64,000 nt of DNA from Bacteroidota bacterium (lineage in GTDB: Bacteria; Bacteroidota; Bacteroidia; Flavobacteriales; Flavobacteriaceae). The number at the start of each line of letters is the position of its first letter. The first letter of the stretch is position 1. The stretch covers positions 1 through 64,000 of the forward strand of contig CANFJB010000011.1 of NCBI GenBank assembly GCA_947447375.1. The letters run 5' to 3'. Below the pieces are notes generated by a model that worked only from the letters and a program-made list of their open reading frames with translations, ran no database searches and was not told where the DNA came from. A program made the translations under genes and the position numbers. Positions 45,338-49,509 of this stretch are shown here, one piece after another.

Positions 45338-45985
45338 TTATTTTCCCTGCAACCAATCTTTTAAATCAAAAAAGTTCTGTGGTGAAACTCCATGCCCAAT
45401 AGGATATTCTTTATAGAAAGAATTTATTCCTAAGCTTTTCAAAACAGGATCTGTTTTACGAGCCCATTCTACAGGGATTACTTGATCTACAGTTCCATGA
45501 GAGGCAAATATTTTCAAATTACTGAAATCATTGTTTTGGTAATTTTCACTATTGATATCCAAATTTAAATAGCCGCTCAATGCACCAACACGTTGAACAA
45601 TATTCGGATAAGAAAGCGCAATTGAATAACTCAAAATCGAACCTTGGCTGAAGCCAATTAAGGTAATATTGGAACTGTCAATTGGGAATTTTATTTTTAA
45701 TTCTTCGATGAATCTAACCACTAAATCTCTAGATAATATTGCCTGGTCGTGATCTGAAAATTTATTTTGATCGGCATCAAAATTAATCGCATACCAAGCG
45801 TAACTACCATATTGTAAGTCATAGGGTGCTCTGGCGGAAATTACATAATATTCGTCGGGTAATTCAGAAGCGAATGAAAACAAGTCGGAATCATTACTTC
45901 CGTAACCGTGTAGTAAAAGCAATAATGGGTTTTTATCTACAATTATTTTTGGTTCGCGAACTTGATATTCTAATGATAATTCCAT
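45338..45985 (-). CDS. Phospholipase/carboxylesterase family alpha/beta hydrolase
   Basis: A 215-residue esterase of the YpfH/EstB group of serine hydrolases. Oxyanion region LLLLHGYGSNDSDLFSFA; nucleophile elbow GFSQGSILSY; acid in HGTVDQVIPVEWA; histidine in YPIGHGVSPQNF. No signal peptide, so cytoplasmic. It is the last gene of a four-gene operon (BatA-like, dihydroorotase-like, DUF4870, esterase) and begins 2 bp after the DUF4870 gene. Substrate unknown; short-chain esters are typical. Confidence 0.85.
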   Translation of the reverse strand: MELSLEYQVREPKIIVDKNPLLLLLHGYGSNDSDLFSFASELPDEYYVISARAPYDLQYGSYAWYAINFDADQNKFSDHDQAILSRDLVVRFIEELKIKFPIDSSNITLIGFSQGSILSYSIALSYPNIVQRVGALSGYLNLDINSENYQNNDFSNLKIFASHGTVDQVIPVEWARKTDPVLKSLGINSFYKEYPIGHGVSPQNFFDLKDWLQGK

Positions 45986-45987
45986 TA

Positions 45988-46314
45988 TTATGAGATGGTT
46001 TTAAACCAATTTTGAAAATAGTGACCTAAAATTGGAATTGGTTTTTCAGACCCACTGATTGCGCTAAATATTCCATAAGTCCACAATATAGAAACTGAAA
46101 TCCACATTGGAACAGAAATAAAAAGGGTGTTGAAATTACTAATAATTAATCCTAAAGAAATGAATGTCAATGAAATACCCAATGCTTGACGAATGTGAAA
46201 TGAAGCAAATGAATTTTTATTTTCACTATTCATAGACATTGCAATAAGTACACCTACAATTAAAATATAGCTTGTAATTGCTATTGTTTTTCCTTCTTCA
46301 ACAGAATTTTCCAT
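45988..46314 (-). CDS. Small membrane protein, DUF4870/Tic20-like
   Basis: A 108-residue membrane protein with three predicted helices (about 10-27, 48-66 and 70-88) and the conserved loop NSFASFHIRQALGISLTFISL, characteristic of DUF4870/Tic20-like import-component-type proteins. GSEKPIPILGHYFQNWFK forms the C terminus. Bacterial members are poorly characterised. Third gene of the operon, 16 bp after the dihydroorotase-like gene and 2 bp before the esterase. Confidence 0.75.
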   Translation of the reverse strand: MENSVEEGKTIAITSYILIVGVLIAMSMNSENKNSFASFHIRQALGISLTFISLGLIISNFNTLFISVPMWISVSILWTYGIFSAISGSEKPIPILGHYFQNWFKTIS

Positions 46315-46330
46315 TTTTTGATTTAAATAT

Positions 46331-47584
46331 TTATGATAAAACTAATTTTCCTTGATTGTAAATTCCATATACTTTTCCTTTCATCTGAGTTCCTAAAAAG
46401 GCTGAATTTTTCGATTTTGAAAGGATATTTTCTTTTTCAAATGTCCAATTTCCATTTGGATTAAAAAGAGTAATATTGGCTTTTTGACCTTCTTTTATTG
46501 ATGAACTTTCAATTCCGAAGTGACTTTTACCTGCGGTTAATTTTTCAATTATTTTTTCTAAAGCAATTTCGTTTGTAAGCGCTCCAAAAGTAGATTCTAA
46601 TCCGATAGTGCCGTTTTTAGCTCCGTCAAATTCCATTTTTTTGTGCTCAATATCAATCGGATTATGATCGGAAGTGATCATATCGATTGTATTATCATTA
46701 ATTCCCGCGATCAACGCTTTTCTGTCTTCTTCAGTTCTTAAAGGTGGTGTAACTTTGTATCTTGTGTCAAACCCTTCTAATTTTTCATCGGTTAATACCA
46801 AATGATGAACTGCTGCGCTACAAGTGACATTTAACCCTTTTGCTTTAGCATTTCTAATCAATTCGACCGATTTTGCTGTTGAAATAGTTGGAATATGCAT
46901 TTTCCCACCTGTATATTCTAAAAGGAATAAGTTGCGGGATATTTGAAGTTCTTCGGCCAAATTTGGAATTCCTTTTAATCCCAATCTAGTTGAAACAACC
47001 CCTTCATTTACCACGCCATTCCCTTTAATACTGGCTTCTTGTGAGTAGGCGATAATCAATCCATCAAAATCTTGAACGTATTGTAATCCGATTTTTAGTA
47101 GGTTGGCATTGTCAATATTTTTATTGTAATCTCCAAATGCAACAGCGCCAGCATTTTTCATATCGAATAATTCCGCCATATCTTTTCCTTCGCTTTCTTT
47201 GGTGAAAGCACCAATTGGATATAATTCGGTTGCAGCTCCTTCGGCTTTATTTTTTACAAAATTAATTTGCGATTGATTGTCAATAATAGGGAAGGAGTTG
47301 GGTTGTAAAGCCACCGCTGTGAACCCACTTTTTGCAGCTACATTTAATCCGTTTGCAATAGTTTCTCGATCTTCAAATCCTGGCTCACCAAGCGAAACGC
47401 TGCTGTCGAACCAACCTTCTGAAAGGTGTAAATTATCTAATTTTATTTCTTCAAAACCATTTTCATTTGGAATTTTACTTCCAATTTTTTCTATGATTCC
47501 TGAATTAATTTTCACATCAACTTTCTGATTGTGGAAAGGACTTTTAGAATCAATTATTGTAGCTTCACGGATAATTAGGTTCAT
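46331..47584 (-). CDS. Dihydroorotase homologue lacking most metal ligands (probable pseudoenzyme)
   Basis: A 417-residue amidohydrolase-fold protein of the type I dihydroorotase family. The start at 47584 gives the family N terminus (MNLIIREATIIDSKS); it overlaps the BatA-like gene by 4 bp (ATGA). The canonical DxHxHLR is DSSVSLG here (60-66), so both metal histidines and the substrate arginine are lost. Y180 replaces the later histidine (AYSQEAS), and the HIQH ligand is HIPT (230-233). Only the general-base aspartate region TSDHNP (D306) remains. The fold is otherwise complete, as in the non-catalytic PyrC' that holds Pseudomonas ATCase together. A structural or scaffolding role is more likely than catalysis; true pyrC is not in the window. 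Confidence 0.85.
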   Translation of the reverse strand: MNLIIREATIIDSKSPFHNQKVDVKINSGIIEKIGSKIPNENGFEEIKLDNLHLSEGWFDSSVSLGEPGFEDRETIANGLNVAAKSGFTAVALQPNSFPIIDNQSQINFVKNKAEGAATELYPIGAFTKESEGKDMAELFDMKNAGAVAFGDYNKNIDNANLLKIGLQYVQDFDGLIIAYSQEASIKGNGVVNEGVVSTRLGLKGIPNLAEELQISRNLFLLEYTGGKMHIPTISTAKSVELIRNAKAKGLNVTCSAAVHHLVLTDEKLEGFDTRYKVTPPLRTEEDRKALIAGINDNTIDMITSDHNPIDIEHKKMEFDGAKNGTIGLESTFGALTNEIALEKIIEKLTAGKSHFGIESSSIKEGQKANITLFNPNGNWTFEKENILSKSKNSAFLGTQMKGKVYGIYNQGKLVLS

Positions 47585-49509
47585 TTTACTAATTTTTGAA
47601 TTAATACTTCTAAAAATAAAAATAATAAGGTCAATATTACAAATATTTTCCAAATTTCGTCATTACTTCGGTCAGAAAGTAAACTATTAAATACAGAATC
47701 TATTGATTTAACTACCTTGTAATCAGATAATAATTGGCTTTGCGATTGCTCTAAATTACTTTCTGAACGATTGTAATTAAAACTAATGTTTCTAACCACT
47801 TCGTCTTTTTTGTAAATTCCAAAATTCCCTGCAAAGATAGGGTAATCATCGAATTGTAATTTAACTTTATTGTTTAATATTTGTTGGGTTGGAATAAATT
47901 TTTCATCATTATTTTTAACCTCCAAAATTTCATCCTTTGACATATTTGTGTCTACTAAAAAAGGTTGATTTTCACCAATTTTTATGGCATTAACTCCAGT
48001 TTTCTGAACGCTTTGCGCCATATTATAAAATATTGGAACAATTAAAGGTGAATTTTGAAAATTGGAATTCATCTTATTAATTGGCGCAGCAAAAACATAA
48101 ACATTAGAAACTTGATTTTGAATGGAAGTCAGAAAACAACTTTGGTCTTCGTAACTTAAAATTGCTGGGTTTGTAGTTTTCAACTCAAAATTTTGCTTCG
48201 TATTTGGATATTGAAAATTATCAATTTTTTTCTCAAATACCGATTGGAATAACGGATGCTGAAAAGCAATTTTAGTGATTAATTTGTTTGCATTTTGGTT
48301 AGTTCCCAATTGAATTTGACCAAATGTTCCTAAAAATCGATTGGTGTCTGTAATTTTACTTTCAGCTGAAGGAATAAATACTAGATTGCCCCCTTTTTCT
48401 ACAAATGATTTTAGATTAGTTACCAATGCTTGAGGCAAATTCTCAAGTTCATTCAAAACAATTGCGTCTTGTTTTTCAATAGTGTTGTAATCTAAAGTTT
48501 CAATTGTAGAATTGCTATAATTGAATTCTTCAGTAGTATAAATCCGAGTTAAGAATCCGCTTTTTTCTGTTTTTCCAATGCTAATAACATTTGTTTTTTC
48601 AGGCTTAGTAATGCTAAAATAATAGGTATTGTCGTATGTCAAACTAGCATCGTTTATAGAAACGTAACCGTTAAAATCTTTCTTTGGAATTGTAAAATTG
48701 ATAGCGGTTTCTGATTTTTTAAATTTCACTAATGTCTTAGCAACTAGTTTGTTATTGTTGTACAAACCAATTGGAATAGCATTATCTTGTTCGCCATATG
48801 ATTTTAAGTTGACACCAATTTCATAAAAATCGTTCAGCGTTTGATTCATATAAACACTGTCAATAGCGATATTATTTTTTTGCTCTGCCTCTGGAGTAAT
48901 AAAGTAGGTATTGAAATTTCCGTCGATGCTTTTTAGTTGTTTTGGTTTTAAACCAATGGCGTCGCTGATGATAATTACATCTTTATTATTGGCACTTTTT
49001 CTAGATTTAATTTTTGCCATTGCACTCTCCAATTGAAAAGGTAGTGGGCTGTAAGTAATATTTTGAACTTCTTTTTGAATTGATTTAATGTCGGTATTCC
49101 AATAGGTTTCACTATTGGTAATCAAAGAAAAAGTTTGATTTTCTGGAGTGTTTTCTAATAATTCTTGAACCGCTCTTTTCAACAATTCACCTTTATTTCC
49201 CTTTGCTTGCATCGAATAGGAATTGTCCAAAACGATAAACATATCGTTGGAAATATTCTTAGAATCTTTGGCTTTGAAAAAAGGTTGAGCAAATGTAATT
49301 ATTAATGCGGTTAATAGTAATAATCGGGTTGCCAATAACAACCATTTTTTAATTTTTGAACTTTTTCGGGTTTGAATTGAAAGTTCTTTTAGGAATCGAA
49401 CGTTCGTGAAATATTCTTTTTTAAAACGACGCAATTGAAACAAATGGACCAGAATTGGAATCACCAACACAAAAAGAAAATAAAGTAGTTCTGGATGTTT
49501 AAATTGCAT
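47581..49509 (-). CDS. BatA-domain protein with vWA-like domain
   Basis: A 642-residue inner-membrane-anchored protein. The N-terminal BatA domain has two helices (about 6-24 and 60-78; HPELLYFLFVLVIPILVHLFQLRRFKK, then KKWLLLATRLLLLTALIITFAQPFF). A von Willebrand A-like domain follows with a MIDAS-type start FIVLDNSYSMQAKGN and later DVIIISDA. A long periplasmic stretch (about 230-610) with gatase-like features comes next, then a C-terminal helix (FVILTLLFLFLEVLIQKLV). These proteins are typical of Bacteroidota and relate to the Bat aerotolerance group, though no other bat genes are nearby. First gene of the operon continuing with the dihydroorotase-like protein. Confidence 0.85.
   Translation of the reverse strand: MQFKHPELLYFLFVLVIPILVHLFQLRRFKKEYFTNVRFLKELSIQTRKSSKIKKWLLLATRLLLLTALIITFAQPFFKAKDSKNISNDMFIVLDNSYSMQAKGNKGELLKRAVQELLENTPENQTFSLITNSETYWNTDIKSIQKEVQNITYSPLPFQLESAMAKIKSRKSANNKDVIIISDAIGLKPKQLKSIDGNFNTYFITPEAEQKNNIAIDSVYMNQTLNDFYEIGVNLKSYGEQDNAIPIGLYNNNKLVAKTLVKFKKSETAINFTIPKKDFNGYVSINDASLTYDNTYYFSITKPEKTNVISIGKTEKSGFLTRIYTTEEFNYSNSTIETLDYNTIEKQDAIVLNELENLPQALVTNLKSFVEKGGNLVFIPSAESKITDTNRFLGTFGQIQLGTNQNANKLITKIAFQHPLFQSVFEKKIDNFQYPNTKQNFELKTTNPAILSYEDQSCFLTSIQNQVSNVYVFAAPINKMNSNFQNSPLIVPIFYNMAQSVQKTGVNAIKIGENQPFLVDTNMSKDEILEVKNNDEKFIPTQQILNNKVKLQFDDYPIFAGNFGIYKKDEVVRNISFNYNRSESNLEQSQSQLLSDYKVVKSIDSVFNSLLSDRSNDEIWKIFVILTLLFLFLEVLIQKLVK

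What the first reader, a model, noticed from the sequence alone, without database searches (positions are those of the whole stretch)
46331..47584. Dihydroorotase homologue that has lost its metal site
HxH is SxS at 62-64, the substrate Arg is Gly, the later His ligands are Tyr180 and Thr233; only the Asp region is kept. The rest of the fold is complete and the gene sits in a tight operon, so it is maintained for something other than normal catalysis. By analogy with PyrC' it may be a scaffold, perhaps for ATCase.
Basis: partly seen in the sequence, partly recalled or inferred. Interest (0 to 1): 0.65.

Follow-up and report, generated by a model that had tools for sequence, protein, structure and literature searches.

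The report
Dead dihydroorotase kept as ATCase scaffold
Flavobacterium and most relatives examined carry a dihydroorotase look-alike that has lost its catalytic metal site but is kept wherever one lineage of the preceding pathway enzyme, aspartate transcarbamoylase, is kept, so it is most likely a non-catalytic building block of that enzyme.

Summary
Window 46331-47584, minus strand, encodes a 417-residue type-I dihydroorotase homologue (best structural match: the ATCase-activated Aquifex enzyme 3d6n). Zn ligands His61/His63/Asp153 and substrate Arg65 are Ser/Ser/Tyr/Gly. It is no pseudogene: dN/dS is about 0.06.

The degeneration is old. Of 122 strong homologues in a 138-genome sample of the class, 121 have lost the site; 20 of 20 read from outside the class keep it. 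The genome has a second, family-typical dihydroorotase.

The protein follows one PyrB lineage: it is in 123 of 123 genomes with that PyrB and in 1 of 15 without it. The 15 include all five genomes with PyrI, one whose congeners keep the protein, and one with an apparently imported pyrB plus intact pyrC. It is less tied to its operon neighbour, a BatA-like membrane protein, though that gene order is widely conserved (93 of 116 class loci outside the family).

Best explanation: a non-catalytic, class A2-type ATCase subunit, like PyrC' of Pseudomonas or PyrX of Sinorhizobium, but usually unlinked from pyrB. Binding was not tested.

The parts
46331..47584 (-). PyrC' : degenerate type-I dihydroorotase homologue, 417 aa (P0001)
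47387..47401 (-). codons 62-66 (S-V-S-L-G) in place of the HxHxR metal/substrate motif
   Evidence: alignment to 3d6n; (S-S-G in 76 of 80 named loci); codon positions by arithmetic from the start
47126..47128 (-). codon 153, Tyr in place of Zn ligand Asp153
   Evidence: Y in 31 of 32 family sequences
47045..47047 (-). codon 180, Tyr in place of His180
46886..46888 (-). codon 233, Thr in place of His232
46667..46669 (-). codon 306, retained Asp305 equivalent
   Evidence: D in 32 of 32 family, 75 of 116 other class sequences
47581..49509 (-). BatA-like membrane protein (642 aa; PF07584 / TIGR02226 N-terminus), stop overlaps PyrC' start (ATGA)
   Evidence: next gene upstream in 31 of 31 family and 93 of 116 other degenerate class loci
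45988..46314 (-). 108-aa protein without a Pfam hit, next gene downstream
   Evidence: downstream in 29 of 31 family loci
45338..45985 (-). carboxylesterase-like (Abhydrolase_2), end of the co-directional run
   Evidence: 31 of 31 family loci

Best explanation
The protein is a non-catalytic subunit of aspartate transcarbamoylase (PyrB): a pseudo-dihydroorotase of the class A2 kind.

Shown by calculation: the type-I dihydroorotase lineage of this class has lost its metal and substrate residues, consistent with a single loss before the sampled members diverged. It is kept under strong purifying selection. It is present wherever the class's own PyrB lineage is present and absent where PyrB is of another lineage (0 of 12).

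Inferred: it still binds PyrB as in the Aquifex DHO-ATCase dodecamer, with dimers of PyrC' holding two PyrB trimers together. PyrB needs it to assemble or work, as in Pseudomonas. Dihydroorotase activity itself comes from the second, 2gwn-like enzyme. The link to a BatA-like gene is inherited gene order rather than the source of the selective pressure.
For: Co-occurrence over the same 138 class genomes: the main PyrB lineage (>=59% identity to own PyrB) is in 123, and all 123 have the degenerate PyrC'. Of the 15 without it, 1 has PyrC' (G399, no PyrB found).

PyrI was over its cut-off in 5 of 138, all 5 without PyrC'; a sixth match (G115) is a 25.8-bit stretch with five stops. In the PyrB tree the PyrI-type PyrBs, G428's PyrB and the second PyrB of G451 form a separate clade. 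G428 lacks PyrC' while its congeners G397, G451 and G471 have it. G216 carries a 46%-identical PyrB next to an intact type-I dihydroorotase. A Hymenobacter plasmid holds a pyrB-pyrC pair whose pyrC is 92% identical to G216's.

Drift of the active site: ligand columns invariant in 22 intact sequences reach up to the 93rd percentile of variability in 116 class sequences, while many core columns stay near-invariant. One clade of 66 pseudo sequences, SH-aLRT 100, quick search. dN/dS median 0.06.

Structure: 3d6n_A Z 46.7, tied within 1 with 4bjh_A and 2z00. In 5 of 19 outgroup loci pyrB lies directly upstream of the intact pyrC, so pairing may be ancestral.

Precedents read: P. aeruginosa pDHO is required for ATCase activity (PMC7053772, passages). 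Disruption of S. meliloti smc01361 gives pyrimidine auxotrophy (PMC5929573, passages); a presumed orthologue next to pyrB (L388) has lost the same sites.
Against: No physical interaction or activity data. The gene lies away from pyrB: 0 of 91 degenerate loci checked have pyrB within the fetched flanks of up to about 4 kb; by the coordinates, G459, not among those 91, has pyrB about 3 kb away on the other strand. The gene sits instead in a conserved pair with a BatA-like gene, which by itself would suggest another partner. G399 has PyrC' without a detected PyrB. The co-occurrence rests on about five separate replacements (five families/lineages), not on 138 independent trials. Distances also covary with BatA after correction for PyrB, though less (0.31 against 0.56).
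Confidence: 0.75

Rival explanations
1. The real partner is the BatA-like membrane protein: PyrC' is a soluble scaffold of a membrane complex that has nothing to do with pyrimidines.
For: BatA-like gene next upstream, mostly overlapping or within about 100 nt, in 31 of 31 family loci and 93 of 116 other degenerate class loci. Distances covary after correction for PyrB (0.31, permutation p 0.003).
Against: The two come apart both ways: BatA-like protein without degenerate PyrC' in G428, G413, G440, G216 and, by weak N-terminal hits, the four f75 genomes; PyrC' with no BatA-like hit in G150, G155, G178, G253 and only E=1.6e-4 in G220. PyrB shows no such exception among the 135 genomes that have a PyrB hit.
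Confidence: 0.1
2. It is still an enzyme: a dihydroorotase with an unusual metal site or a hydrolase acting on another substrate.
For: D306, H307 and N96 are kept in all 32 family sequences read, and S62, G66 and Y153 are fixed or nearly so, so the pocket is constrained in this family. PMC2770081 (passages) reports that a Zur-regulated PyrC paralogue lacking zinc residues has dihydroorotase activity.
Against: Outside the family the ligand columns vary from lineage to lineage while the protein stays tied to PyrB; a shared enzyme activity would be expected to keep its residues. A second dihydroorotase with the family signature is present.
Confidence: 0.08
3. In Flavobacteriaceae the dead pocket has become an effector (for example nucleotide) site, so that PyrC' acts as a regulatory subunit comparable in role to PyrI rather than as a pure scaffold.
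For: Pocket residues are refrozen in the family (S62 32/32, G66 32/32, Y153 31/32, D306 32/32) although variable in the rest of the class; PyrI over its cut-off and PyrC' do not co-occur in the 138 genomes. Pseudomonas class A2 ATCases are inhibited by nucleotides (PMC7053772, passages).
Against: No ligand or regulatory data; the fixed residues may only reflect packing or shared ancestry; the effector site of class A2 enzymes is not established in what was read.
Confidence: 0.05
4. A decaying or neutral relic with no function.
For: Only the loss of catalytic residues.
Against: dN/dS median 0.060 over 69 close pairs (range 0.032-0.092) and 0.073 for window vs L212; matches in 148 of 149 family genomes, no stops inside in any row listed.
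Confidence: 0.01

Closest known systems
PyrC' / pDHO of Pseudomonas class A2 ATCase (P. aeruginosa, P. putida)
   Same: Type-I dihydroorotase homologue without zinc or substrate residues, retained beside a separate active dihydroorotase; proposed partner PyrB without PyrI.
   Different: Here the gene is not next to pyrB but behind a BatA-like gene; binding and need for ATCase activity are shown for Pseudomonas (PMC7053772, passages) and not here. The Pseudomonas sequence itself was not compared.
PyrX (smc01361) of Sinorhizobium meliloti
   Same: Ligands lost at the same columns in a presumed orthologue (L388: R,F,G at 61/63/65, G at 153, G at 180, E at 232, S at 305). Disruption of smc01361 causes pyrimidine auxotrophy (PMC5929573, passages).
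   Different: L388 overlaps pyrB by 4 nt. It forms its own clade with other alphaproteobacterial sequences, but a joint clade with the Bacteroidia set is not rejected and scored better (p-AU 0.774), so common or separate origin is open.
Aquifex aeolicus dihydroorotase in complex with ATCase (3d6n, class A1)
   Same: Closest fold (Z 46.7, 404 residues, rmsd 2.6) and 32% identity.
   Different: Aquifex enzyme keeps His61, His63, Asp153 and is active in the complex (PMC3880350, passages).
2gwn-like dihydroorotase of Bacteroidota (NF006688)
   Same: Same superfamily; it is the second copy in this genome (C1:211724-212995).
   Different: 28% identical; keeps R65, H180, H232, D305 and H309 equivalents, with Gln for the first His (also in 2gwn); presumed to be the working enzyme.

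Membership tests
Class A2 ATCase pseudo-dihydroorotase subunit (PyrC'/PyrX/pDHO) | Homologue of type-I dihydroorotase with the complete fold | tested here: met
   TIGR00857 281.5 bits vs cut-off 279.05; 3d6n Z 46.7 over 404 residues; pLDDT 86.4
Class A2 ATCase pseudo-dihydroorotase subunit (PyrC'/PyrX/pDHO) | Zinc ligands and substrate residues lost | tested here: met
Class A2 ATCase pseudo-dihydroorotase subunit (PyrC'/PyrX/pDHO) | Separate dihydroorotase elsewhere in the genome | tested here: met
   (by homology, activity not measured); no E. coli-type enzyme (TIGR00856) found
Class A2 ATCase pseudo-dihydroorotase subunit (PyrC'/PyrX/pDHO) | Occurs with a PyrB that lacks PyrI | tested here: met
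   present with 123 of 123 main-lineage PyrB, with 0 of 5 genomes over the PyrI cut-off
Class A2 ATCase pseudo-dihydroorotase subunit (PyrC'/PyrX/pDHO) | Forms a stable complex with PyrB | not testable with these tools
   no complex prediction or binding assay available; only 3d6n similarity
Class A2 ATCase pseudo-dihydroorotase subunit (PyrC'/PyrX/pDHO) | ATCase activity depends on it | not testable with these tools
   needs enzymology or a deletion mutant
Class A2 ATCase pseudo-dihydroorotase subunit (PyrC'/PyrX/pDHO) | Gene adjacent to or overlapping pyrB (typical, not defining) | tested here: not met
   own pyrB is on another contig (C4); 0 of 91 degenerate class loci have pyrB in the flanks
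Dihydroorotase (enzyme) | Metal ligands His61, His63, Asp153 and substrate Arg65 | tested here: not met
   S62, S64, Y153, G66
Dihydroorotase (enzyme) | Reaches an NCBIfam dihydroorotase equivalog cut-off | tested here: not met
   none of the equivalog models listed is passed (best 331 bits vs 645); only the subfamily_domain model TIGR00857 is, by 2.4 bits; 25 of 30 families were shown

The most novel reading that the evidence does not exclude
Early in the Bacteroidia a dihydroorotase was displaced by another enzyme and kept as an obligatory non-catalytic subunit of ATCase. Its translation was then coupled to a BatA-like inner-membrane protein, which tethers the pyrimidine-synthesis complex to the membrane.
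Probability: 0.08. Interest if true: 0.75.

Novelty: new variant of a known kind. Interest (0 to 1): 0.52.

Why it matters
A protein that automatic annotation calls dihydroorotase (seen here for a Rufibacter copy) and that was found in 124 of 138 sampled genomes of a bacterial class probably has no dihydroorotase activity and is instead part of the committed enzyme of pyrimidine synthesis. Its joint loss with PyrB is a natural experiment on how a metabolic enzyme, once displaced, survives as a subunit. It makes a sharp prediction: supplying a PyrB that works alone should make PyrC' dispensable. Metabolic models that count this gene as a redundant PyrC would need correction.

Tried and rejected
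Pseudogene: rejected by dN/dS about 0.06 and near-universal retention (148 of 149 family genomes).

BatA as the partner that explains presence and absence: rejected as the main driver because the two genes dissociate both ways. The conserved pairing itself stays unexplained.

Absence of PyrC' in G405 and G457 (weak single-protein hits) was a wrong first reading: a profile search found very divergent degenerate copies. G399 likewise has one, without a detected PyrB; it is the only exception. For the four f75 and three f2 genomes searched I saw no such copy (for G442 also the region behind its BatA-like gene).

G428 (410 contigs): the contig ends 307 nt after the BatA-like gene. The three forward frames there show no PyrC' start, but a copy in an assembly gap cannot be wholly excluded.

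Independent origin from alphaproteobacterial PyrX: I expected it, but the AU test does not reject a joint clade (p 0.774; the held tree even scored 18.9 log units better). I make no claim, and the loss may then predate the class.

Alternative E. coli-type dihydroorotase in the genome: none at E <= 1 (the same search finds E. coli among its controls).

Interface mapping onto the Aquifex complex: the paper with the interface (PMC3863388) is not held and no complex prediction is available. Low-confidence model loops 68-72 and 311-321 contain residues that are among the best conserved (P68, G69, K315, E318). That fits loops ordered only in the complex, but is only suggestive.

Literature: listings of searches (18 of 18; 16 of 16; none; 6 of 6; 25 of 1,664; 15 of 44; 17 of 17) showed no paper on a Bacteroidota pseudo-dihydroorotase. 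Two of these lists were only partly seen and most subscription papers are not held, so this is no proof of absence. Labedan et al. 2004, cited in PMC5929573, was not seen. Passages of PMC4581275 and PMC6022934 were also read; they describe ATCases bound to active or inactive dihydroorotase and, in the passages shown, no Bacteroidota case.

Full report
What is there. The finding lies on the minus strand: window 46331-47584 encodes P0001, 417 aa. It is a type-I dihydroorotase homologue: TIGR00857 at 281.5 bits against a cut-off of 279.05, and below the cut-off of every equivalog model listed (25 of 30 families shown). Aquifex 3d6n is the best sequence match in the PDB. An AlphaFold2 model from 49 sequences (the window's and 48 from Flavobacterium-type loci) has pLDDT 86.4 and pTM 0.89. 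Its best structural match after realignment is 3d6n_A, the ATCase-activated Aquifex enzyme, Z 46.7, rmsd 2.6, 404 residues, tied within 1 with 4bjh_A and 2z00; Foldseek ranks 4yiw and 3d6n first.

The lost site. Aligned to Aquifex, His61, His63, Arg65, Asp153, His180, His232 and His309 are Ser62, Ser64, Gly66, Tyr153, Tyr180, Thr233 and Ile310. Asn95 (N96), Asp152 and Asp305 (D306) are kept. In Aquifex the Zn ligands are His61, His63 and Asp153, with Asp305 next, and the H180A/H232A double mutant is still active (PMC3880350, passages). The decisive losses are therefore His61, His63, Asp153 and Arg65.

Where it comes from. The named scan kept the best 80 loci, most of them titled Flavobacterium or Flavobacteriaceae and two filed under Rhizobium and Bdellovibrio MAGs. 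So the window is most likely from a Flavobacterium; its assembly (G000) has 2.39 Mb in 25 contigs, completeness 95.7%. The gene is under purifying selection: dN 0.047, dS 0.642 against L212, and median dN/dS 0.060 over 69 close pairs among equal-length loci. In the family, 148 of 149 genomes have a match, the weakest at 2e-95. I read the ligands in 32 of the family sequences: 32 have Ser62, Gly66 and Asp306, 31 Tyr153.

Second dihydroorotase. The genome has one other homologue, at C1:211724-212995, 28% identical. It passes NF006688 dihydroorotase (728.5 bits, cut-off 535). It is closest to 2gwn of Porphyromonas, with which it shares a Gln in place of the first His. No E. coli-type enzyme was found.

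Depth of the loss. In a sample of 138 genomes of the class, 122 have a strong match (E < 1e-50). I read the ligand columns of all 122. Only one, G216, keeps the full set; four others keep both His61 and His63 but have lost Asp153. The replaced residues differ from lineage to lineage. Of homologues outside the class but inside the phylum I fetched 20, picked from the rows listed; all 20 have the intact set. In a tree of 92 sequences the 66 degenerate ones form one clade with SH-aLRT 100 (quick search), with G216 outside it. Columns at the active site that are invariant in 22 intact sequences rank from the 35th (Asp305) to the 93rd (His232) percentile of variability in 116 degenerate class sequences, while P68, G87, Y169, G202, P280 and G325 are invariant. 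So the fold is constrained and the pocket, outside the family, much less.

What it goes with. Over the same 138 genomes I searched PyrI, PyrB by family, own PyrB and the BatA-like neighbour. 'Main-lineage' PyrB means at least 59% identity to own PyrB: 123 genomes, four of them with a PyrB split over contigs or incomplete (G406, G427, G492, G495). All 123 have degenerate PyrC': 121, plus G405 and G457, whose very divergent copies were found by a profile search. The other 15 are five genomes over the PyrI cut-off, the four f75 genomes, G160, G428, G216 and three without a PyrB hit (G399, G413, G440). Of these only G399 has a degenerate PyrC'. One further PyrI match, in G115, is a 25.8-bit stretch with five stops and below the cut-off. 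The PyrB tree (76 sequences) puts the PyrI-type PyrBs, G428's PyrB and the second PyrB of G451 in one clade apart from the main lineage. The PyrBs of G160, f75 and G216 sit on very long branches, so their placement is unsure. The absences represent about five separate lineages, so the counts must not be read as independent trials.

Two telling replacements. G428 has no PyrC' hit while three genomes of its genus keep it; its only PyrB is 35% identical to ours and follows two frames of 1112 and 402 aa that I take, by recall, for CarB and an aminotransferase. Its BatA-like gene is still there without PyrC' in the 307 nt before the contig ends. G216 has a 46% PyrB directly upstream of an intact type-I dihydroorotase. 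A Hymenobacter canadensis plasmid carries a pyrB-pyrC pair whose pyrC is 92% identical to that of G216. In both G428 and G216 the class's own PyrB and PyrC' are missing together; import of the new pair in G216 is inference.

The operon. A BatA-like gene is next upstream in 31 of 31 family loci and 93 of 116 other degenerate class loci, mostly overlapping or within about 100 nt (three of the 93 were labelled 'down' by my script because of frame extension and were checked against coordinates). It comes apart from PyrC' in both directions. pyrB is mostly not near: 0 of 91 degenerate loci with flanks of up to about 4 kb; in G459, not among these, searches place pyrB about 3 kb away on the other strand. 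Own pyrB is on contig C4 behind a 191-aa frame that I take, by recall, for PyrR. In 5 of 19 outgroup loci pyrB is directly upstream of intact pyrC. In 45 genomes with all three sequences, PyrC' distances correlate with PyrB distances after correction for BatA (0.555) more than with BatA after correction for PyrB (0.310). This is weak evidence, since alignment length and rates differ.

Mechanism. Best reading: PyrC' is a non-catalytic subunit of ATCase. Shown: loss of the site, retention under selection, co-occurrence and co-absence with one PyrB lineage. Inferred from Aquifex, Pseudomonas and Sinorhizobium: physical binding, dodecameric assembly, and dependence of PyrB on it. In P. aeruginosa the ATCase chain is monomeric and inactive without pDHO (PMC7053772, passages). 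In S. meliloti disruption of smc01361 gives pyrimidine auxotrophy and the authors propose PyrX (PMC5929573, passages). The S. meliloti record I read (L388, presumed orthologue) has lost the same columns and overlaps pyrB. A caution: a Zur-regulated PyrC paralogue without zinc residues is reported active (PMC2770081, passages).

Compared with what is known. It works like PyrC'/PyrX, and four of seven features of that kind were tested and met. Two were not testable (binding, dependence). One typical but not defining feature, adjacency to pyrB, was not met. I file it as a new variant of a known kind. Whether it shares an origin with alphaproteobacterial PyrX is open (p-AU 0.774).

Noticed in passing
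window 47581-49509 and L036-L182: A BatA-like two-anchor membrane protein gene precedes the pseudo-dihydroorotase gene in 93 of 116 degenerate class loci outside the family although the two are not strictly co-retained; the reason for this deep gene order is unknown.
   Followed up: partly
L184 8668-10005 (G000:C1): The presumed working dihydroorotase of this genome has Gln in place of the first His of HxH, as do the solved 2gwn and several relatives; G367, G399 and three f75 copies have His there.
   Followed up: partly
L211 and L280: Contigs filed under 'Rhizobium sp. Q54' and 'Bdellovibrio sp. ZAP7' MAGs encode 97% and 74% identical Flavobacterium-type PyrC', so they look misbinned.
   Followed up: no
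L386 (G399:C230): Degenerate PyrC' directly behind a BatA-like gene in a genome where no PyrB was found; assembly gap or a second role.
   Followed up: partly
L394 5001-6281: A Rufibacter tibetensis record of 12.5 kb, labelled plasmid, carries a degenerate PyrC' overlapping an upstream unnamed gene.
   Followed up: no
G112 (family f1, 2.2 Mb): The only one of 149 family genomes without any dihydroorotase-like match by the P0001 search; the A1 profile search found none either.
   Followed up: partly
window 46331-47584 and L388, L392, L394: Proteins without the metal site are labelled dihydroorotase in public records (L388, L392, L394); P0001 itself passes TIGR00857 by only 2.4 bits.
   Followed up: partly
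   Followed up: partly
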